Made by a program: the position numbers and the translations under genes. Source: Acidobacteriota bacterium (GTDB lineage Bacteria > Acidobacteriota > Terriglobia > Acidiferrales > UBA7541). From it: 12,099 nt of DNA. Position 1 is the first letter of the stretch. Each line of letters starts with the position of its first letter. Below the pieces are notes generated by a model. That model was not told the DNA's origin, made no database searches, and saw only the letters and a list, made by a program, of their open reading frames with translations. The stretch is taken from contig PKUY01000326.1 in assembly GCA_003131705.1 (NCBI GenBank), positions 1 through 12,099 on the forward strand, written 5' to 3'. Positions 2,303 to 11,968 of the stretch are shown here, one piece after another.

Positions 2303-4096
2303 CTAACGCCACTTATCGACGGAGGCGCTCGCTGTGTAGCTGAAGTCTCCTGCCGACCAATAGGTGTTGGTTTCGCCGCCTAACACGATGATCTCGATCG
2401 ACGAAGTTGGCTTTGCGTCGGCGGGCGCTCCCGGCCGGGGTCGCCGCCAGAAACGCGATACCGGTATTTCCGCGTCTCCCATCTTCAAATAAGACGCGTA
2501 GGGCTCAACTCCGGCTTGCGCCTGTTTTAGTTCGTTCTGGCGCGTCTGCCAGTACAGCCAGCCCGGCGTCTTGGAATTTGTGGCGAGCCACTCGCTGTAC
2601 GCTTCCTTCGAGTCAAAACCGTGCGCCTTGATGTCATTGGCGACGACTGGATCGAGCAAGAGCGTAGCCGCTCCCACACTGGTCGAGAAGAAGTGCGTCA
2701 GCCATCCCTTAATCACTTCGTGCAGCGGAAGGGGACAAAACCACGCAATGTCATTCATGCTCCATCCGGTGAAGATGCTCACGACGCTCTCGTCCGCCTT
2801 GAATCCTTTTTGCACATGCAAAGGAATCCAGCCAGCGGGCAGCTTATCTTCCGTTTCCGGAAAGCAGATATTGTTGTAATTGAATCCGTTTCCCTGGGTT
2901 CCCATGTAAGTCTGTCCGGGCATTCCGGACGCAGCCAAATTCTTGGACAGTAGCGTCCATGCCCTTCCGATCGTTGCATTCGCATCGTTGAAAGGACCCA
3001 TTGCGCCGATTCCCGAATTCATTTTGATTTGATCGCGAATGGGGCCGTTTACAACGACCATGCGGGCGAAAGAAGATGTGGAACTGAAAAGGGAAGTCAC
3101 TCCGGTCGCCGCTATGGCCAGGATTACGGGAAAGAATTCCGGCTGCGCTCCTGCCATCACAGCGTTGACGGCCACCTGCTTGACGGTGAACGACCAGTCC
3201 GGAAAAGCTCCAGGCGCCGCACTCATTTTTCCGACCACTTCATCCGGGTGATGACTCGTGCCTTTCAGCATCGCATCCACTTTTTCCTGCATGGGCAGGA
3301 TGATGGGCATGTAGTCCGTCATTCCATTGTCGGCGTAATACCGCTGCAAGTTGTCCGCCGTGTCGGTGTACGTCGGAGGGCCGATGGTGGGAGTGATCGT
3401 TCCCGTCTTTTTCTCTTCGGCCGCCAGCGGTTTGGTAAGAGCTTCGACGACTTCCTTCATCAGTGGTTTTCCGCTGACAGGATCATTCCCGTCGAGACAT
3501 GCGTACATCTGCTCGTCCGTTTTGTTCGTCAGAGGATGCGGTGTGAAGCAGATACGCTCGAGTGGCATGCCGCGTCCGGCGGCGTTGGAAAGCGCGAGCT
3601 CCTTGAACGCAATCGTGACCATCGGAGCTGTCGGGAAACCCATCTTTTCAACTGTTACGCAGTGACCCACGGTCGCTGGTGTGCACGTGCTTCAATGGCC
3701 GATCGCCATGATCATGGCGTTGCCCTTGGCTTTAATCTCTGCCCATAACTTGGGGTCGTCGTCGGCGAGCCCTCCGGCCTTTAATCGATACACGGTGTTC
3801 ACGCTGGGCATGTTCTTGGTGAACCAAATTCTGATCTGTTCCAGAAAGCGATCCGCGCCGGCGAATCCGTCGGATACGAGATAGACGGTCTTGCCATCGA
3901 GGCTATCCAGCCGGGGCGCCATGGGTATCAGCTGTATAGCCGGCGGCGAGCCTTTGGGATTCAGCGTCTCGAGTTTGACCCCGACAGCGGACGCCGAAAC
4001 CTTCTTCTTTGTCTGATCGCCGAGCAAAGGAGAACCAGTCAACAGCGCTGGTGAAATGCCCAGTATCGACAATAGCTTTCGCCGGTTAATTTTCAT
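2303..4096 (-). CDS. UGSC-family selenoprotein, in-frame TGA read as selenocysteine, Tat-like signal
   Basis: Read through the TGA at 3694-3692 this is one 597-residue protein with Sec135. The motif G-H-U-S-T-C (133-138) fits the redox motif of the UGSC family, in which Sec or Cys is followed two residues later by Cys, and G-F-P-T-A-P (153-158) follows as expected after such a motif. Residues 4-10 (N-R-R-K-L-L-S) plus a short hydrophobic stretch look like a Tat signal, so export is likely. Residues 68-165 form an alpha/beta domain holding the motif. Residues 310-385 form a second conserved block (V-V-N-G-P-I-R, then N-A-T-I-G-R-A). The C-terminus has I-I-V-L-G-G-E-T-N-T. The molecular function is unknown. 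The ATG at 4096 is preferred over 4159 because the signal starts there and GGGAG lies about 10 nt upstream. The downstream half has no ribosome-binding site of its own. It lies 243 bp after the PQQ dehydrogenase gene and may be co-transcribed. The alternative is a nonsense mutation, which I think less likely. Confidence 0.83.
3659..3691 (-). promoter_or_regulatory. candidate bacterial SECIS hairpin
   Basis: Directly after the TGA the mRNA can fold as three short stems separated by bulges: GCA (3690-3688) with UGC (3661-3659), GUG (3686-3684) with CAC (3664-3662), and ACC (3680-3678) with GGU (3667-3665). The 10-nt apical loop is AGCGACCGUG. Its second base is G, 16 nt after the UGA. Known bacterial SECIS elements have an apical loop roughly 16-37 nt after the UGA, with a G among its first two bases. 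An alternative inner pairing, CAC (3683-3681) with GUG (3670-3668), is also possible. The stems are short, so the call rests mainly on position. Confidence 0.45.
3692..3694 (-). other. in-frame UGA, predicted selenocysteine codon (Sec135)
   Basis: The only in-frame stop in 597 codons is a TGA, the one stop codon used for selenocysteine, and it falls exactly at the first position of a U-x-x-C redox motif, three codons before TGC (Cys138). The frame is kept on both sides without insertion or deletion. Decoding would require selA, selB, selC and selD elsewhere in the genome; none is in this window. Confidence 0.8.
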
Positions 4097-4339: not shown

Positions 4340-6070
4340 TCAGGGCAACGAGAACACGTAGATCGCATTTTGTCCCGTTGGAGTCTTCAGCTCAGGAACT
4401 TCTGCGCTCAGTTCCGGTACTTTCAGGTTGTTACCCGTCATCACGCAGACGTACTGCTTTCCGTTGACCGCGTAGGTGATCGTGCTAACGGAAATATTGC
4501 CCCCGAGGATCGATTCCCAAAGCTTCTTTCCGGTATCGAGGTCGAAAGCGCGGAACCTTCGAGACATGTCTCCGTGAAAAAGCAGGCCTCCGGCTGTCGT
4601 CAGCATAGCGCCGTTTCCGGGAGCACGCCCCACATCGAAGTGCATGGTCTCGCCGGTCGATAGATTTACCTTCGCCAGTCCTGTAAGCGCATTCGGATCC
4701 GATCCGGGCCGAGGGATAACTTTCCATCCTCCGCGCCCAGCGGGCCCAGCCAAAATCATATCGCGGCAATTATCGATGTAAGGGATATACAGAGAATTGT
4801 TCTCGGCGTGGTAGGCGGTGGGCCAATAGCTTCTAGTATTCCAGTAACAAACGATATGGCGTTCCCCGGGGTGCTTATATACCAAATCCCAATTGAGGGT
4901 GGTTTGCCCGGTCTTCACGTCTATGTTGGACAGTACATAATTCGGATCGTCATACGGAAATGGCGTAGCCCATAGAAACTTGCCGTTGTGGCGGTCGAGG
5001 ACGAATATAGTGCCGCCTTCGGCAACCATCGCTGCGATGTCATGCTTCGATCCGGCGGGAACGTCGGGATTGATCCACTTGATGAATTTGGGATTCGGAT
5101 TGAAAGCCACGTTCGCAAGCGTGCGCTCGTGCGTGTGGTCCGTGTCCCAATCATCGCCCGGCAGATGCTGGTAATACCAGATGAGTTTGCCGGTTGCGGG
5201 ATCGAGTGCGAGAGTGCTGTTGCTATAGAGGTCGGCCGGCGTGGAACGCGATGTGCCGTCGGGATCGCCATTGTGTCGCGCTGACCGCTGGTCCGGCATG
5301 GGATTTGCGACGCCCCAATAAATCACGTTGCGAACAGGGTCGAAGCTCCCCGGCAATCCCCATGTGGACGCCATGTCTTCGGAGTTATCTGCGCCGCCCC
5401 AAGATGCGTACCCCGGATCGTCGGGATGCGCCACGGTGAAAAATCTCCAGACTTTCTCGCCGGTCTTCGCATCGTCCGCTTCGATGAAGCAGGTCTCGCG
5501 TCCCTTGCCGCATGTGCCGCCCGAGATCACTTTACCGTCGATCACGAGAGCGCCAGAAGTGTTTTGCGTTTCGGTCTTGAATGTTTCCCAGCGCACCTTG
5601 CCCGTACGTGCATCGAGCGCTACCACGTAGCCGTCAGGCGCGGTGAAGTACACCATGTCTTCAAACATCGCCAGAGACTTCGTCCTTTCCACGGATCCCA
5701 CTTGTGGCGTTTTGTACTCGCGCTTGTACTCCCAGATCAGATCTCCATTTGTGGCGTCGAGGGCGTCGACGTTTCCGCCCGGCACGATCACGTACATCAC
5801 GCCATCGTGGACGATGGGAATGGTTTCCGTGACGCCGTCGGCAAGGCCACGCACCCACGTCATCCGAAGCTGATTGACGTTCTTCTTGTTGATCTGCTTC
5901 AGCGGGCTGTCCCGCTGCGCGTCATACGTGCGGCTGTACATGAGCCAGTCATCCGGACTAGGGTTCAAAAGCATCTCTTGCGTCACCGGCTTATAATCTT
6001 GAGCCCGTGCGAGCATCAGCGGAAGCGCTGCAAAAAGAAGGGCTATTACGAGAGTCGAAATTCTAATCAT
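4340..6070 (-). CDS. periplasmic PQQ-dependent dehydrogenase (methanol/ethanol type)
   Basis: A 576-residue quinoprotein of the eight-bladed beta-propeller type that oxidises an alcohol or similar substrate with PQQ and a metal, passing electrons to a periplasmic cytochrome. Residues 1-23 are a Sec signal peptide ending in A-R-A. Propeller 'tryptophan-docking' repeats are visible, such as A-L-D-A-R-T-G-K-V-R-W (151-161), A-L-D-P-A-T-G-K-L-I-W (288-298) and A-F-D-L-D-T-G-K-K-L-W (508-518). Candidate active-site residues are Asn256 (V-A-N-P) and Asp309 with Asp311 (D-D-W-D-T-D). The adjacent Cys-Cys disulfide of MxaF is not seen; Cys187 and Cys194 might pair instead. There is no CxxCH motif, so no fused cytochrome domain. 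AGGAG lies 5 nt before the ATG at 6070. It is divergent from the act operon and upstream of the selenoprotein gene. The substrate is unknown. Confidence 0.9.
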   Translation of the reverse strand: MIRISTLVIALLFAALPLMLARAQDYKPVTQEMLLNPSPDDWLMYSRTYDAQRDSPLKQINKKNVNQLRMTWVRGLADGVTETIPIVHDGVMYVIVPGGNVDALDATNGDLIWEYKREYKTPQVGSVERTKSLAMFEDMVYFTAPDGYVVALDARTGKVRWETFKTETQNTSGALVIDGKVISGGTCGKGRETCFIEADDAKTGEKVWRFFTVAHPDDPGYASWGGADNSEDMASTWGLPGSFDPVRNVIYWGVANPMPDQRSARHNGDPDGTSRSTPADLYSNSTLALDPATGKLIWYYQHLPGDDWDTDHTHERTLANVAFNPNPKFIKWINPDVPAGSKHDIAAMVAEGGTIFVLDRHNGKFLWATPFPYDDPNYVLSNIDVKTGQTTLNWDLVYKHPGERHIVCYWNTRSYWPTAYHAENNSLYIPYIDNCRDMILAGPAGRGGWKVIPRPGSDPNALTGLAKVNLSTGETMHFDVGRAPGNGAMLTTAGGLLFHGDMSRRFRAFDLDTGKKLWESILGGNISVSTITYAVNGKQYVCVMTGNNLKVPELSAEVPELKTPTGQNAIYVFSLP

Positions 6071-6222: not shown

Positions 6223-6393
6223 TTTATCGCGCTCACGCGGCTCAAGTATGTGATCGCTTGACAGTTGTGGCGAGGTCGCGAACAGTTGAGCGAGCGATCT
6301 TGCCTGCAGTTCGCGGAATCAAAAAGTGGAAATCCTCGTTTACAGAGTTGGAGCGAGCATGTAGTATGTGCCTTCGCACTCAAGCCCCGTTCT

Positions 6394-6400
6394 GAAGAGG
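6394..6400 (+). promoter_or_regulatory. ribosome-binding site that decides the actA start
   Basis: GAAGAGG lies 5 nt before TTG at 6406. It favours this TTG over the farther upstream in-frame TTG at 6265 (no good Shine-Dalgarno sequence) and over ATG at 6463, which would cut off most of the membrane signal. Confidence 0.5.
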
Positions 6401-6405
6401 GTGAT

Positions 6406-7032
6406 TTGTCGCGGTCTAATCTCGGCCTGAAACGTTGTCTTCGCGTTACAGTATTTCTCGGCATGATTATCTTGGTGTTGTCGCTGCTCGATCGAACATC
6501 GCCCGCCCAGGATACGGCCCCGCCACCTCAGACGATGACGCAGAGTTCTCCGATCTTCACTCCTGCGCACCGCACTGTTATGGACGCCGTTCGTGAGTTC
6601 TTTGGTTCGCGTCAGAAACCCGTCCAGCCGATCGCGTACACTCACAAGGTGCATCTGGCCAATGGTATGCAATGTACGGACTGCCACGTGGGCGTCGATC
6701 GAGGCCCGGACGCCAGAATCCCGAGCGTCAATTTTTGTATGACTTGCCATCAAGTGATTGCCACTGACAAGCCAGAAATCAAGAAGCTCGCGGCCTATCG
6801 CGCGCGCGGCGAAGACATCCCGTGGCAACGAGTGTACGGATTTCTTCCGTCCGCGCATGTGAAGTTCAATCACGCGCCCCACATTCGGGCAGGAGTGGAC
6901 TGCGCTCAATGCCACGGCGATATGACCAAGCAAACCGTGGCCGTGCGCATGGTGGACCACACCATGGGATTCTGCGTGCAGTGTCATCGTGAAAAGAATG
7001 TGTCGGTTGATTGCGTGGCGTGTCATTACTAG
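6406..7032 (+). CDS. actA: pentaheme cytochrome c subunit of alternative complex III
   Basis: A 208-residue multiheme cytochrome with five CxxCH motifs: C90-H94 (CTDCH), C111-H115 (CMTCH), C166-H170 (CAQCH), C190-H194 (CVQCH) and C203-H207 (CVACH), the last right at the C-terminus. Residues 9-27 form one hydrophobic segment after basic residues, serving as an uncleaved anchor or signal, so the hemes face the periplasm. Five hemes at the head of a Mo-like/Fe-S/NrfD/DUF3341 operon match ActA of alternative complex III, a quinol:cytochrome c (or oxidase) oxidoreductase. QrcA of the Qrc complex is similar, but Qrc lacks a DUF3341 subunit. The start is uncertain: TTG 6406 is preferred from the ribosome-binding site, and TTG 6265 is an in-frame alternative. 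It is first in the operon, 54 bp before actB1. Confidence 0.87.
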   Translation: MSRSNLGLKRCLRVTVFLGMIILVLSLLDRTSPAQDTAPPPQTMTQSSPIFTPAHRTVMDAVREFFGSRQKPVQPIAYTHKVHLANGMQCTDCHVGVDRGPDARIPSVNFCMTCHQVIATDKPEIKKLAAYRARGEDIPWQRVYGFLPSAHVKFNHAPHIRAGVDCAQCHGDMTKQTVAVRMVDHTMGFCVQCHREKNVSVDCVACHY

Positions 7033-7055
7033 GGCTCTTTTGTTGATCTGTCGCC

Positions 7056-7070
7056 GCGGCCAGAGGCCGC
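7056..7070 (+). promoter_or_regulatory. GC-rich hairpin between actA and actB1
   Basis: GCGGCC-AGA-GGCCGC is a perfect 6-bp stem with a 3-nt loop in the 54-bp gap after actA. It is followed by CGCTAAAAAG rather than a T-run, so it is not a standard terminator. It ends 16 nt before the actB1 ATG, just upstream of its ribosome-binding site (AAAGGA), and could affect processing or set the ratio of the two subunits. Confidence 0.4.
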
Positions 7071-7086
7071 CGCTAAAAAGGAATTC

Positions 7087-9369
7087 ATGGAACGTCGCGA
7101 TTTCCTGAAGATCTCGGCTGCTACCGGTGCCGTCGCGGCCCTGGAAGGCTGCGGCAATCCCGATCACCAGCTCATCCGGTTTGTGCCGGAAGAGGATATG
7201 CTGCCGGGGCTCGCCACATGGAAGCCGAGCATCTGCACGCTTTGCCCGGCCGGCTGCGGCATGCTGGTGCGCGTGATGCAGGGGGAAGCAGAAGTTGTGC
7301 GCAATGGCCAATTGGGCATTCTGAAAATGGGCCTGCCGAAGAAACTCGAAGGAAATCCCGCACACCCCATTAGCCATGGTCGATTGTGCCCACGGGGTCA
7401 GGCGGGCTTGCAGGTTACCTATCACCCGGACCGCATCAAGACACCGCTCGCGCGGTCGGGTCCGCGAGGCTCCGGCCAGTTTCAGGAAATCACGTGGGAT
7501 GAAGCGATGAAGCAGCTTCTGTCTCATCTCACTGCGCTGCAAACAAGCAATGAGCAAGGCAAGATCGGCTTTCTAACATCGCCACTTCGTGGACAACGAA
7601 AAACAATCGTTCATGGTTTCGCCGCTGCCCTTAAGGCCGCACCACCCATCGAGTTTGCGTTTTTGGCGAGCCGCACGATCCAGGAAGCGAATGCGTGGAG
7701 CTTCGGTTCGGACGCGCTGCCGACCGTGGATCTAAGCCACTCGAATTACTTGATCTCTTTCGGAGCCGATTTCCTCGGCACTTGGAATTCACCCGTCGCG
7801 CAGTCCGTCGGGTACGGCCACATGCGCAATGGGCGCACGGGCCAGCCCGGCAAGTTCGTTCAAGTTGAATCGCGCATATCGCAGACGGGTGCAAGCGCGG
7901 ATGAATGGATTCCATCGCAGCCCGGCATGGACGGAGTGTTCGCGCTGAGTCTCGCCCACGTAATCCTCAGCGAGAAGCTGGGAACTGCCGGCGCAGCGGG
8001 CCACGCCGGCGCTTTGATCGCCGGATGGTCGGAAGGCTTGCCCGATTACGCACCTGCAGCTGTCGAAAAGCAGATTGGTGTTCCCGCTGCCACGATTTCA
8101 AGAATTGCTCGCGAAGCTGCGGCCAACGCTCCGGCAGTTGCGTTGATCGGTGACGGCCCGGCCGCGCATACCAACGGATTCTTCAACGCGCTAGCGGTAA
8201 ATGCTTTGAACGCCGTGCTCGGCAGCGTAGGAAAGCCCGGCGGAATCGTGTTCAGCCCGGTTTGGACTTCGCAATCCGGCAAACCCGGCGCCGCGGAAGG
8301 GAAGAAGGACGGGGAAAGCTCCGTCCGAACTCTCGCGGAGCAGATACATGCCACTCCGGACTCCGTGAAAGTTCTGCTCGTTGACGGTGCCAATCCCGTT
8401 TTTGCGACGCCGATGGCGTGGCGCGTGCGCGAAGCTTTCGAGAAAGTTCCTTTCATCGCGAGTTTCGGAAGTTTCATCGACGAAACCACCGTCCTCGCAG
8501 ATTTGATTTTACCGGATCACTCGCCGCTGGAGTCCTGGCTCGACGATTCGCCGGAATCCGGCTCGACAAAAACGGTAGCCAGTCTTGCACCGCCCGCTAT
8601 GCAACCGCTTCACAATACGCGCTCGATGCCCGATGTACTGCTCGACTTGGCTCATCAACTGGGCGGTCCGGTCGCCGCGGCTTTGCCGTGGAAGACGTAC
8701 GATGACGCGCTGAAGATAGCCTTCAGCAGCCTCCAGAAACAGAAGGGATCCGTGAGCGCTACCGATGCCGACGATTTCTGGACGAAAGTGAAGGACCAGG
8801 GCGGCTGGTGGAGCGCTGAAGACAAATCGGTTTCCCTCGCCGCTGGGAAAATACCTGCCGCCGCCGTGAAAAATACGGCGCCTCAATTTGATGGCAGCCC
8901 CGATCAGTTTCCCTTTCACTTCTTGCCGTTCGCTTCGCAGCTATGCTATGACGGTTCGCTCGCTCATTTACCCTGGATGCAGGAATCGCCAGACCCGCTT
9001 TCGACCGTGATGTGGGGGACATGGGTCGAGATGAACCCCCGAACTGCCGAGAAATTGGCTATCAAGCAGGGGGACACAATCGAAGTTGCGTCTCAGCACG
9101 GTTCGCTGAGGGCGCCGGCGTTGATCGCGCCAGGAATTGCGCCGGACGTGATCGCAATGCCGATTGGCCAGGGCCACACGAATTTCACCCGCTACGCAAG
9201 CGGTCGCGGAGCAAATCCAATCTCGATTTTGGCGCCGATGGTTGAGTCCGGTACGGGTTCACTTGCCTGGGCAGCTACGCGGGTCAAAATTTCGCACATC
9301 AGTGAAGGTAAGATCGTTATGTTCGGCGCCAGTCTGACCGACGCTTCGCCCGAGCTAAAGCATCGGTAA
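7087..9369 (+). CDS. actB1: molybdopterin oxidoreductase-like subunit of alternative complex III
   Basis: A 760-residue member of the molybdopterin oxidoreductase superfamily. The N-terminus has a Tat signal (R3-R-D-F-L-K) and a possible lipoprotein cysteine, Cys22 (L-E-G-C), which suggests export and anchoring at the outer face of the membrane. Cys50, Cys53, Cys57 and Cys101 form the usual N-terminal [4Fe-4S] motif (CxxCxxxC, then L-C-P-R-G). The block around 196-236, with F-G-A-D-F-L-G-T-W-N-S-P-V, is typical of ActB-like proteins; no Cys is present where the Mo ligand would sit, in keeping with ActB being a cofactor-poor relative. The C-terminal third carries the nucleotide-cofactor fold (M-N-P-R-T-A-E-K-L at 653-661). 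In many bacteria ActB is one fused protein, but here the Mo-like and Fe-S parts are separate genes. AAAGGA precedes the ATG by 4 nt. Confidence 0.87.
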   Translation: MERRDFLKISAATGAVAALEGCGNPDHQLIRFVPEEDMLPGLATWKPSICTLCPAGCGMLVRVMQGEAEVVRNGQLGILKMGLPKKLEGNPAHPISHGRLCPRGQAGLQVTYHPDRIKTPLARSGPRGSGQFQEITWDEAMKQLLSHLTALQTSNEQGKIGFLTSPLRGQRKTIVHGFAAALKAAPPIEFAFLASRTIQEANAWSFGSDALPTVDLSHSNYLISFGADFLGTWNSPVAQSVGYGHMRNGRTGQPGKFVQVESRISQTGASADEWIPSQPGMDGVFALSLAHVILSEKLGTAGAAGHAGALIAGWSEGLPDYAPAAVEKQIGVPAATISRIAREAAANAPAVALIGDGPAAHTNGFFNALAVNALNAVLGSVGKPGGIVFSPVWTSQSGKPGAAEGKKDGESSVRTLAEQIHATPDSVKVLLVDGANPVFATPMAWRVREAFEKVPFIASFGSFIDETTVLADLILPDHSPLESWLDDSPESGSTKTVASLAPPAMQPLHNTRSMPDVLLDLAHQLGGPVAAALPWKTYDDALKIAFSSLQKQKGSVSATDADDFWTKVKDQGGWWSAEDKSVSLAAGKIPAAAVKNTAPQFDGSPDQFPFHFLPFASQLCYDGSLAHLPWMQESPDPLSTVMWGTWVEMNPRTAEKLAIKQGDTIEVASQHGSLRAPALIAPGIAPDVIAMPIGQGHTNFTRYASGRGANPISILAPMVESGTGSLAWAATRVKISHISEGKIVMFGASLTDASPELKHR

Positions 9370-9386
9370 GGAAGGACTCAAGGCCA

Positions 9387-10094
9387 ATGGCACATCAGTG
9401 GGGTATGGTAATCGATCTCGACCGGTGCACGGGCTGCGCTGCCTGTGTGGTGGCGTGCCATGCCGAAAATAACATTTCGACGGTGGGCGAAGATCAGGCT
9501 GCACGCGGACGCGCAAAACATTGGATTCGCGTCGAGCGATATTACGAGGGTGAGTTTCCCGACGTCCGCGTAAAGTTCATGCCCGTGCTTTGCCAGCAAT
9601 GCGACGCAGCTCCATGTGAGCCGGTGTGCCCCACTTTTGCGAGCTATCACACGATCGAGGGCCTCAACGGCCAGGTCTACAATCGCTGCATCGGCACTCG
9701 CTATTGCGCGAACGCCTGCCCTTATAACGTGCGCTTTTTCAATTTCTACAATCCTGAATGGGACAAGCCGCTCAACCTGCAGCTGAATCCCGATGTTTCG
9801 GTGCGTTCAGTCGGAATCATGGAGAAGTGCACGTTCTGCGTGCAGCGCATTAAAGCTTCTGAAATTCAAGCGGAGGCCGAGAAGCGCGCGGTGAAGGACG
9901 GCGAGATTCAACCGGCGTGCGTGCAGTCGTGCTCCCCTCACGCGATGGTATTTGGAGATCTCAGCGATCCCCAAAGTGAGGTTTCGCGTCTGGCGCGCTC
10001 AAGCCGAGGCACAAAGCTTCTCGGCGAATTGGGAACACAACCGAAGGTAACCTACCTTCAACGGGAATCATGGCATGGCGCAGAAAACGCCTGA
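9387..10094 (+). CDS. actB2: ferredoxin-like four-cluster Fe-S subunit of alternative complex III
   Basis: A 235-residue Fe-S electron-transfer subunit of the PsrB/DmsB type with four cluster sites: C14-x2-C17-x2-C20-x3-C24; C69-x2-C72-x4-C77-x3-C81; C101, C107, C111, with Thr104 in place of the fourth Cys; and C148-x2-C151 with C178 and C182. The Thr substitution (C-I-G-T-R-Y-C) is typical of ActB proteins and predicts one [3Fe-4S] beside three [4Fe-4S] clusters. It has no signal peptide of its own, so it is probably co-exported with the Tat-bearing actB1 product. It starts 17 bp after actB1, with AAGG just upstream, and its 3' end overlaps actC by 20 nt, consistent with translational coupling. 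It equals the C-terminal half of fused ActB proteins. Confidence 0.9.
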   Translation: MAHQWGMVIDLDRCTGCAACVVACHAENNISTVGEDQAARGRAKHWIRVERYYEGEFPDVRVKFMPVLCQQCDAAPCEPVCPTFASYHTIEGLNGQVYNRCIGTRYCANACPYNVRFFNFYNPEWDKPLNLQLNPDVSVRSVGIMEKCTFCVQRIKASEIQAEAEKRAVKDGEIQPACVQSCSPHAMVFGDLSDPQSEVSRLARSSRGTKLLGELGTQPKVTYLQRESWHGAENA

Positions 10095-11436
10095 GCAAAT
10101 AAACGAAGATCTGCTGCGCCCTCTCTCTGGAACCTCAGGGCGCTACCTGATTGTGCTCGCCTTTTTGGCGGGCATAGTCATCGCCGCGCTCTGTTCGTTC
10201 TTCTGGCAGGTGTACGCCGGCCTTGGTGTGTCGGGGCTTCGCTCTCCCGTTTTCTGGGGCTTTTACATCACGAATTTCGTTTTCTGGATCGGACTGAGCC
10301 ATGCCGGCACGCTGATATCCGCCATCCTGCGTCTTGCGAACGCCACCTGGCGGCGTCCGGTAACGCGGTGCGCCGAGGTGATCACCGTCTTTGCGCTTTC
10401 CATCGGCGCGACGTTCCCGGTGATTCACCTGGGCCGTCCTTGGCTGGCTTTCTGGCTTTTTCCCTATCCAAGCGAGCGCGGCATCTGGCCCAACATCCGT
10501 TCGCCGCTTCTTTGGGATTTTTTCGCAATCAACACTTATTTGATTAGCAGCGTTACGTTCCTGCTGCTGCCGATGCTGCCGGACTTGGCGCTCGTTCGCG
10601 ATCGAGCCGCGGGCTGGAAGAAAAAAGTCTATTCCGTGCTTGCGCTGGGTTGGACCGGGACGCCCAAGCAGTGGAACCGCCTCGAGCGCGCCATGCATAT
10701 CATGGCCATCGCCGTGATTCCCGTAGCTGTGTCCGTGCACAGCATCGTCTCCTGGGATTTCGCCATGGCTCCTGTTCCCATGTGGCATTCCACAATCTTC
10801 GCTCCCTATTTCGTAGCGGGCGCGATCTTCAGCGGAATCGCCGCACTCATTCTCGCCATGGCGTGCTTGCGAAAGTTTCTGCACCTCGAAGAATATTTGC
10901 TCCCGATTCACTTCGAGAACCTGGGCAAGCTCCTGCTGGTGATGAGCCTTCTCTGGTTTTATTTTGTGTTCGCGGAGCGCTTGACGGCTTGGTATGGCAA
11001 CGACCCTTCCGAAATGACCGTATTCTGGGTTACCCAGACGGGGTCGTTCTCGCCGCTTTTCTGGCTTATGGTCCTTTGCAACTTCGTGATTCCGTTTCCG
11101 CTGCTCGCGATCAAAAAAACGCGAACGATCCTCGGGACGTCGATCGCTTCCGTCACCGTTGTGATCGGCATGTGGCTCGAGCGTTATCTGATCATCGTCC
11201 CTTCGCTCTCCCATAAGTATTTGCCTTACAGTTGGGGCACGTACAGGCCAACCTGGGTTGAGCTCACCATCACTGCGGGTACTTTTGCCGCAATGGTTAT
11301 GCTCTACATGATTTTCTCAAAGCTTGTCCCGATCATATCGATATGGGAATTAAAGGTGGGATTGCGTGAAGAGGCTCATCCGGCTCCCGCGTTAGCACCG
11401 TCGCACACGCAGCCGAACGAAGTAGGGGCAGACTAA
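10075..11436 (+). CDS. actC: NrfD-like integral membrane quinol-binding subunit
   Basis: A 453-residue polytopic membrane protein of the NrfD/PsrC family with about ten predicted helices, for example around 23-44, 59-84, 100-120, 147-169, 206-226, 242-265, 285-301, 324-345, 355-375 and 396-418. Conserved segments match ActC: S-H-A-G-T-L-I-S-A-I-L (75-85), W-H-S-T-I-F-A-P-Y-F (237-246) and E-R-L-T-A-W-Y-G (301-308). The family oxidises quinol at the outer side of the membrane and passes electrons to the Fe-S subunit; in alternative complex III it may also contribute to proton movement. The ATG at 10075 lies inside the end of actB2 (20-nt overlap), and the stop is one base from the actD start. 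A second NrfD-like subunit (ActF) is expected in canonical complexes but is not in the window. Confidence 0.92.
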   Translation: MAQKTPEQINEDLLRPLSGTSGRYLIVLAFLAGIVIAALCSFFWQVYAGLGVSGLRSPVFWGFYITNFVFWIGLSHAGTLISAILRLANATWRRPVTRCAEVITVFALSIGATFPVIHLGRPWLAFWLFPYPSERGIWPNIRSPLLWDFFAINTYLISSVTFLLLPMLPDLALVRDRAAGWKKKVYSVLALGWTGTPKQWNRLERAMHIMAIAVIPVAVSVHSIVSWDFAMAPVPMWHSTIFAPYFVAGAIFSGIAALILAMACLRKFLHLEEYLLPIHFENLGKLLLVMSLLWFYFVFAERLTAWYGNDPSEMTVFWVTQTGSFSPLFWLMVLCNFVIPFPLLAIKKTRTILGTSIASVTVVIGMWLERYLIIVPSLSHKYLPYSWGTYRPTWVELTITAGTFAAMVMLYMIFSKLVPIISIWELKVGLREEAHPAPALAPSHTQPNEVGAD

Positions 11437-11437
11437 C

Positions 11438-11968
11438 GTGTCAACCTTATCCACAATTTACGGGCTTTTTCCTGATCCCAATTCCGCCGAGCGAGGAATG
11501 AATGCGCTGCGAAGCGCGGGAGTCAATCGCGACAATATCGTCGTGATGTCGGACGAGCCTTTTGAGGAATATTCTTTCGGACACGCCGAGCCTTCGGTGG
11601 CCATGCCTTGGCTGGCCGTTTTGGGAGGCTTGGTCGGCGGCACGGGCGGTTTTCTCCTCGCGCGATTGACGCAGGTGGCTTACCCCATCGTCACTGGCGG
11701 AATGCCGATCGTCGCCCCATTTCCTACCGCGATCGTCACCTATGAACTCACCATGCTGGGCGCTGTCTTGACGACCATAGTCACTCTTCTCATCACCGCG
11801 AAGATTCCGAAGTGGAAGCAAGAGCTGTACGACCCTGAAGTAACCCGAGGCAAAATCCTCATCGCAGTAATTGATCCCGCGGATGACGCACGCGCCGATC
11901 TCGAAGACCGGTTGCGGAACGCCGGCGCTGACGAAATAAAATCTACCGGCCGCTTCAGCGCGATCTAG
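11438..11968 (+). CDS. actD: DUF3341 membrane subunit of alternative complex III
   Basis: A 176-residue protein with the DUF3341 layout. A soluble N-terminal part resembles a small ferredoxin-like fold (Y-G-L-F-P-D-P-N-S-A-E-R-G at 8-20), two transmembrane helices lie at about 56-77 and 103-124, and a soluble C-terminal tail contains G-K-I-L-I-A-V (137-143). ActD has no cofactor and packs against the membrane subunits ActC and ActF. The start is GTG at 11438, one base after the actC stop, with AGGGG (11424-11428) upstream inside actC. It is the last operon gene in the window: 111 bp follow before a tRNA, and no actE or actF is present. Length is near the family norm. Confidence 0.88.
   Translation: MSTLSTIYGLFPDPNSAERGMNALRSAGVNRDNIVVMSDEPFEEYSFGHAEPSVAMPWLAVLGGLVGGTGGFLLARLTQVAYPIVTGGMPIVAPFPTAIVTYELTMLGAVLTTIVTLLITAKIPKWKQELYDPEVTRGKILIAVIDPADDARADLEDRLRNAGADEIKSTGRFSAI

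What the first reader, a model, noticed from the sequence alone, without database searches (positions are those of the whole stretch)
2303..4096. A selenoprotein hidden as two open reading frames split by TGA
Seen: two minus-strand frames lie in the same phase and are separated by one TGA at 3694-3692. The joined protein has G-H-U-S-T-C at 133-138, a Sec-x-x-Cys redox motif. The second part has no ribosome-binding site or natural start. Known: the UGSC family takes its name from a U/C-G-S-C motif in which Sec can replace Cys. Inference: the TGA codes selenocysteine. Automatic annotation would split the gene or call it a pseudogene. The C-terminal ~450 residues form an uncharacterised extension with strongly conserved-looking blocks.
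Basis: partly seen in the sequence, partly recalled or inferred. Interest (0 to 1): 0.85.

Follow-up and report, generated by a model that had tools for sequence, protein, structure and literature searches.

The report
Expanded selenoprotein family in Acidobacteriota
A bacterial gene that looks cut in two by a stop codon very probably makes one selenium-containing enzyme, and its genome holds about a dozen more copies that nearly all carry the same in-frame stop; what the enzymes do is still unknown.

Summary
One TGA (3694-3692) interrupts a 597-codon frame. The same codon is TGA in 79 of 95 gene copies in loci found by patterns lying downstream of it, and Cys in 11. selA is present in 14 of 14 genomes with a TGA copy and 0 of 7 whose fetched copies are all Cys. 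The window's own MAG has tRNA-Sec (anticodon UCA), selD, selA and the start of selB side by side. A SECIS-like stem downstream of TGA shows synonymous covariation in 21 family members. The protein is a long form of the known, uncharacterised UGSC family (PF24696), with motif USTC. The copies are older than the species, often have twin-arginine-like N-termini, and cluster with quinoprotein genes. The Sec domain is modelled as Rossmann-like and is probably related to GrdB/PrdB (hhalign 87%). The substrate is unknown. I think it is a Sec-dependent oxidoreductase family, exported in this genus (whole scheme about 0.35).

The parts
2303..4096 (-). selenoprotein gene, long form of the UGSC family: 597 codons with Sec at codon 135, stop TAG at 2305-2303
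   Evidence: PF24696 84.7 bits; relatives
3692..3694 (-). TGA codon 135, read as selenocysteine (motif G-H-U-S-T-C)
3660..3678 (-). candidate SECIS hairpin CAG-c-GACC-(GUG)-GGUC-a-CUG, starting 13 bases after the TGA
   Evidence: read; in 31 members with the same protein motif 27 keep all seven pairs, 4 lose the top pair, no compensating change; covarying stem at nearly the same place in 21 other members; Rfam found nothing
4019..4096 (-). N-terminal stretch MKINRRKLLSILGISPALLTGSPLLG, twin-arginine-like export signal (inferred)
   Evidence: low pLDDT 1-36; no Pfam or NCBIfam TAT-signal hit at E 0.001
3397..3919 (-). Sec domain, modelled as Rossmann/flavodoxin-like; Sec sits between strand 127-133 and helix 138-151
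   Evidence: AlphaFold2 model, VIA-align for model residues 63-233, GrdB/PrdB profile match
2306..3421 (-). C-terminal domain of about 370 residues without a clear match among solved folds
   Evidence: model pLDDT 91.4, pTM 0.90; Foldseek and VIA-align
4340..6070 (-). quinoprotein-like beta-propeller (PF01011) upstream on the same strand; a similar 576-residue gene stands in the same place next to the orthologue in congener G001 (L168)
   Evidence: synteny; enrichment around family copies

Best explanation
The gene encodes one selenoprotein. SelB delivers Sec-tRNA to the TGA at codon 135, guided by an RNA hairpin just downstream, using the selC-selD-selA-selB cluster of the same genome. The protein has an N-terminal Rossmann-like domain whose Sec-x-x-Cys lies between a strand and a helix, probably as in the Sec domain of the glycine/proline reductase subunits GrdB/PrdB, joined to a ~370-residue domain of unknown fold that I take to be the substrate-binding part. 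Inferred mechanism: the selenolate attacks the substrate or a disulfide, the neighbouring Cys resolves it as a selenenylsulfide, and a redox partner resets it. In many relatives of other phyla the partner may be a thioredoxin-reductase-like flavoprotein encoded next door. In this genus the proteins are probably exported and paired with quinoproteins. The window gene is one of at least 14 Sec-coding copies in its MAG, which diverged before the species did and so probably serve different substrates. Shown: family, conserved TGA, machinery, covariation in relatives, copies, gene neighbours. Inferred: Sec in the protein, export, chemistry, partners, substrates. The figure below is for recoding, family and copies; the chemistry and partners I put at about 0.35.
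For: TGA at the homologous codon in 79 of 95 copies, Cys codons in 11. selA in 14 of 14 genomes with TGA copies, 0 of 7 whose fetched copies are all Cys, among 23 genomes tested. Own assembly, contig C228 of 3,038 bases: tRNA-Sec (52.4 bits, gathering score 47; ARAGORN tRNA-SeC, anticodon tca), selD 367 bits, selA 460 bits, first 96 residues of selB running off the contig end. Of 171 wobble-position pairs tested downstream of the TGA, the three best covarying (codons 5-8, 6-7, 4-9) form one nested stem. G000 has TGA at 14 of 15 readable copies; congener G001 (30 contigs, 1% contamination) 10 of 10. Copies of a genome do not pair with each other: 15 rows need 15 changes, 10 need 10. Quinoprotein genes within 3 kb of 14 of 25 UGSC clusters in three genomes, 1.3 expected. 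A flavoprotein ORF of one cluster with a CxxC in 15 of 80 loci, 9 within 300 bases on the same strand; PF07992 in 3 of 3 tested. GrdB/PrdB profile match 87.3%, E 3.8e-6, Sec on Sec; two reversed and 11 column-shuffled controls at most 0.5%.
Against: No expression, mass-spectrometry or selenium-labelling data. Rfam finds no SECIS. The minimum-energy fold of the window's own 45 bases is not the proposed hairpin, and in its clade the stem never covaries; 4 of 31 members lose a pair. Downstream folding is only mildly stronger than shuffles in Sec copies (mean z -0.76, n 111; Cys copies +0.95, n 12). The assembly is a fragmented MAG (81% complete, 441 contigs) and selB is cut by a contig end and below its cut-off. 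The tRNA-Sec model alone is not specific: it also passes at a tRNA-Ser of this MAG and in 5 of 14 control genomes. With the UxxC columns masked the GrdB match falls to 35-38% (same register), and with the whole-length alignment it is 42%. No TAT-signal model fires. A subfamily has Leu or Met at the Sec site, so Sec/Cys chemistry is not essential to every member. 11 of 25 UGSC clusters have no quinoprotein within 3 kb.
Confidence: 0.9

Rival explanations
1. The TGA is a true stop. The gene is broken (pseudogene), or the two halves are separate genes with the second starting at GTG 3670 or ATG 3643.
For: Start codons exist after the TGA, and 84 of the 120 listed database hits are pieces starting at query residue 143 or later.
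Against: Same TGA in 79 of 95 copies across several phyla; uninterrupted Cys versions in genomes of which 0 of 7 have selA; both halves equally conserved.
Confidence: 0.02
2. TGA is read as another amino acid by a reassigned code or general readthrough.
For: A frame open under TGA=residue is not by itself evidence for Sec.
Against: The alternatives at the codon are mainly Cys codons (11 of the 16 non-TGA rows); co-occurrence with selA; tRNA-Sec in the genome; covarying downstream stem in relatives. The use of TGA as an ordinary stop elsewhere in this genome was not counted.
Confidence: 0.01
3. The Sec protein is a GrdB-like reductase that cleaves C-N or C-halogen bonds of small substrates, the copies having different substrates, rather than a general thiol-disulfide enzyme.
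For: Profile match to GrdB/PrdB with aligned Sec, Cys and E-x-x-G-x-P-T; GrdB-related proteins are proposed to bind monofluoroacetate in its defluorination (PMC10838667 abstract); copies retained as orthologous sets; neighbours in the genus include AMP-binding enzymes and hydantoinase A/B genes.
Against: No PF07355 match for the window protein at E 0.001; grdA/C/D/E or pyruvoyl partners were not looked for; the similarity is limited to about 65 columns and leans on the UxxC motif.
Confidence: 0.25
4. Exported antioxidant or disulfide-handling protein (peroxidase- or isomerase-like) that protects periplasmic quinoproteins and cytochromes.
For: UxxC motif; clustering with quinoproteins, and a cytochrome c gene in one cluster; CxxC flavoprotein neighbour elsewhere.
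Against: The large conserved C-domain and the many old copies suggest substrate specificity; the Sec domain model is Rossmann-like, not evidently thioredoxin-like.
Confidence: 0.2

Closest known systems
UGSC-containing selenoprotein family (PF24696; GOS survey 2008, PMC2398784; review 2026, PMC13188914)
   Same: Pfam hit over cut-off; UxxC motif with Sec/Cys exchange; function described as uncharacterised
   Different: USTC instead of UGSC, ~370-residue C-domain, below the NF041046 equivalog cut-off, twin-Arg-like N-terminus, many copies per genome
GrdB/PrdB (PF07355), Sec subunits of glycine and proline reductases
   Same: Sec-x-x-Cys and a following E-x-x-G-x-P-T aligned in one register in the profile comparison
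   Different: No PF07355 hit for the window protein; Sec domain is N-terminal; different C-domain; none of the window genes that were scanned matched a grd family
Thioredoxin-fold Sec oxidoreductases
   Same: UxxC redox motif; the 2008 paper supposed a Trx-like fold
   Different: Predicted alternating strand-helix order of Rossmann/flavodoxin type; Trx folds are not among the rows shown, which does not exclude them
Largest known bacterial selenoproteomes (Olavius Delta1, at least 57; a Methylomirabilota MAG, 63)
   Same: Heavy use of Sec in one genome (numbers from PMC13188914)
   Different: Here at least 14 Sec genes are of one family; the total selenoproteome was not counted

Membership tests
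UGSC family (Pfam PF24696) | score over the Pfam gathering cut-off | tested here: met
   84.7 bits vs 25
UGSC family (NCBIfam equivalog NF041046) | score over the curated cut-off | tested here: not met
   65.4 bits vs 125; not filed under this equivalog
UGSC family | literal U/C-G-S-C motif | tested here: not met
   USTC here; UGSC, UGTC and UGAC occur in more distant relatives
Selenoprotein | in-frame TGA conserved and replaced by Cys in homologues | tested here: met
   79 TGA, 11 Cys of 95
Selenoprotein | selA, selB, selC, selD in the genome | tested here: met
   selA, selD and tRNA-Sec over cut-offs; selB only as an N-terminal piece cut by the contig end, 133.9 bits, below its cut-off of 242.25
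Selenoprotein | SECIS element downstream of TGA | tested here: inconclusive
   covarying stem in 21 members; in the window's clade only a conserved candidate; no Rfam hit
Selenoprotein | Sec present in the protein | not testable with these tools
   needs mass spectrometry or 75Se
GrdB/PrdB (PF07355) | Pfam match | tested here: not met
   no hit at E 0.001 for P0001; none listed at E 10 for 8 relatives, though HMMER's filters drop most weak matches
GrdB/PrdB (PF07355) | profile-level homology of the Sec domain | tested here: inconclusive
   87.3% prob., 42% with the whole-length alignment, 35-38% with the motif masked, controls at most 0.5%
Thioredoxin fold | Trx-like structure | tested here: inconclusive
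   model Rossmann-like; Trx folds not among the rows shown
Tat substrate | twin-arginine signal and Tat translocase | tested here: inconclusive
   RR pattern in 9 of 14 G000 and 8 of 10 G001 rows; TatC pieces over cut-off; no TAT_signal model hit

The most novel reading that the evidence does not exclude
In this acidobacterial genus a GrdB-related Sec enzyme has been exported to the periplasm and has radiated into ten or more old, orthologously retained copies per genome, each serving a different substrate and many wired to a quinoprotein/cytochrome c chain: a Sec-based periplasmic oxidoreductase repertoire unlike any characterised one.
Probability: 0.35. Interest if true: 0.8.

Novelty: new variant of a known kind. 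Interest (0 to 1): 0.6.

Why it matters
UGSC proteins were among the major selenoprotein families of the GOS aquatic metagenomes in 2008 (PMC2398784), yet a 2026 review still counts them with families of largely uncharacterised function (PMC13188914). This work gives a clean test set: Sec versus Cys copies whose distribution follows selA, two recurrent neighbours (a CxxC flavoprotein; quinoproteins) and a likely link to GrdB/PrdB. It also shows an acidobacterial genus in which single genomes carry ten or more Sec genes of one family. Database listings often hold only the piece after the TGA (84 of 120), so the redox capacity of these bacteria is probably under-annotated.

Tried and rejected

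Papers: PMC2398784 passages and section 9; PMC13188914 passages; PMC9312934 passages; PMC12013277 passages; PMC10838667 abstract and outline. PMC1976440 is not held. All other papers were seen in search listings only. That no report on a UGSC expansion in Acidobacteriota was met rests on those seven searches and on PMC13188914 having no 'acidobacteri'; preprints and most subscription papers are not covered.

Full report
What is there. On the minus strand 4096..2303 is a 597-codon frame with one TGA at codon 135. The database form of this gene is a 446-residue piece starting after the TGA (P0002), and 84 of the 120 listed hits begin at query residue 143 or later. The protein matches Pfam UGSC (84.7 bits, cut-off 25) but stays under the NCBIfam equivalog cut-off (65.4 vs 125).

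Is the TGA selenocysteine? Relatives were found with two peptide patterns in the C-domain, so the sample was not chosen by the Sec site. At the homologous codon 79 of 95 copies have TGA, 9 TGC, 2 TGT, and 5 something else: CTG, TTA, ATG, and TCA and GCC in two distant copies of L049. By record title and the tree's origins the hosts include Acidobacteriota, Pseudomonadota, Chloroflexota, Actinomycetota, Bacillota and Spirochaetota. I then asked for selA in the 23 genomes behind 26 of the 80 loci, chosen to hold Cys, Leu/Met and a set of Sec cases: 14 of 14 genomes with a TGA copy have it over the cut-off, 0 of 7 genomes whose fetched copies are all Cys have it, and both genomes with neither (L030, L049) have it (by hand, Fisher about 9e-6, not corrected for relatedness). 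L046 (TGC) lies in the same genome as L061 (TGA), which has selA. Completeness of these genomes is not told, so an absence can be a gap.

Machinery in the window's own assembly. Contig C228 (3,038 bases) carries tRNA-Sec (52.4 bits, gathering 47; ARAGORN reads tRNA-SeC with anticodon tca), selD, selA and the first 96 residues of selB, cut by the contig end. The Rfam model alone would not do: it also passes at a tRNA-Ser of this MAG and in 5 of 14 control genomes. selA is over cut-off in 36 of 41 relatives.

SECIS. In 21 distinct members with the sequence U-x-x-C-x-P-x-V-V (one of them another copy of this MAG), third codon positions 5 and 8 form Watson-Crick pairs in 21 of 21, with three pair types. 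Of 171 wobble-wobble pairs tested, the three best (5-8, 6-7, 4-9) are one nested stem. Such synonymous covariation is expected of an RNA element and not of the protein. The shuffles do not correct for relatedness. The window's clade has a hairpin a few bases further on: in 31 members with its motif P-A-T-V, 27 keep all seven pairs and 4 lose the top pair, without any compensating change, so it is conserved but untested there. Sec copies fold slightly better than dinucleotide shuffles (mean z -0.76, n 111), Cys copies worse (+0.95, n 12), and the minimum-energy fold of the window's own 45 bases is another one. Rfam gives no match.

More than one gene. The family profile finds 22 matches in the window's own MAG. 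At the Sec codon 14 of 15 readable copies, the window's included, have TGA and one TGC; one further copy has Ns there and the remaining matches are pieces without the site. Among 20 genomes of the genus, 12 have 5-22 matches, one has 2 and 7 have none; outside it 1 of 21. Congener G001, in 30 contigs with 1% contamination, has 10 copies, 10 of 10 with TGA. On a FastTree tree of 136 rows copies of one genome do not pair with each other (G000 without the window 15 rows, 15 changes; G001 10 rows, 10 changes) while several pair with a copy of the other genome: the copies diverged before the species. The window copy pairs with L168 of G001, which has a similar quinoprotein neighbour. Two congeners match public records titled Candidatus Acidiferrales: a contig of G009 has the length and gene set of the L022 record, and a protein of G013 begins like that of L023. 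The host is thus probably of that order; this is inference.

Neighbours. In the 80 loci, 15 hold a flavoprotein ORF of one sequence cluster (one of them, L083, a chimaeric overlapping ORF); all 15 hold a CxxC and 9 lie within 300 bases of a UGSC gene on the same strand. Three of three tested are pyridine nucleotide-disulphide oxidoreductases (PF07992); 'TrxR-like' is my reading of size and motif. In the genus, quinoprotein genes (PF01011) lie within 3 kb of 4 of 8, 5 of 6 and 5 of 11 UGSC clusters in G001, G008 and G017 against 0.45, 0.25 and 0.62 expected; a cytochrome c gene stands beside one cluster. Of the N-termini, 9 of 14 rows in G000 and 8 of 10 in G001 carry a twin-arginine pattern, typically NRRKxLSLLGxSPALLAG. 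TatC is present in two pieces. No TAT model fires on the window protein, so export is inference.

How it works. Shown: a conserved Sec/Cys site, the machinery, many copies, recurrent neighbours. Inferred: the selenolate is the nucleophile, the Cys three residues on resolves it, and a flavoprotein (other phyla) or a quinoprotein/cytochrome system (this genus) closes the cycle; the C-domain chooses the substrate. I put about 0.35 on this whole scheme, 0.97 on Sec insertion.

Novelty. The Sec family is known, the long form was perhaps glimpsed in 2008, and its function is described as uncharacterised. New here, as far as the seven searches and the passages read show: the many-copy expansion in one acidobacterial genus, its link to quinoproteins, the Sec/selA co-distribution for this family, the synonymous covariation of its SECIS and the GrdB/PrdB similarity.

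Noticed in passing
6265-11968: Plus-strand operon of multihaem cytochrome, molybdopterin-like subunit with TAT signal, Fe-S subunit, NrfD and ActD (PF11821): an alternative complex III-like set; NCBIfam's best matches are Qrc/Dsr subunits below cut-off.
   Followed up: partly
L029 5913, L030 7283, L049 7280: A UGSC subfamily with Leu or Met at the Sec site (GQLDTCAPSV, GHMDTLGP) but the rest conserved; the three genomes have selA. Possibly a non-redox or inactive form.
   Followed up: no
L147, L148, L150, L152, L153, L155: PrdB/GrdB-like proteins in Acidobacteriota with TGA at the Sec site and about 160 residues more after it than in L149 or L151.
   Followed up: no
L177 8466-12667: Hydantoinase A and B genes among four or more UGSC copies in congener G013.
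   Followed up: no
L022 / L176: Three tandem UGSC copies, two with Cys and one with Sec, on one contig.
   Followed up: no
L060: Public MAG record titled Klebsiella pneumoniae holds a Sec UGSC gene that groups with copies from other Pseudomonadota MAGs such as Rhodospirillales; the title is probably wrong.
   Followed up: no
467-1372: 301-residue plus-strand ORF with only weak, sub-cut-off similarity to HD-domain phosphonate oxygenases and no Pfam hit.
   Followed up: no
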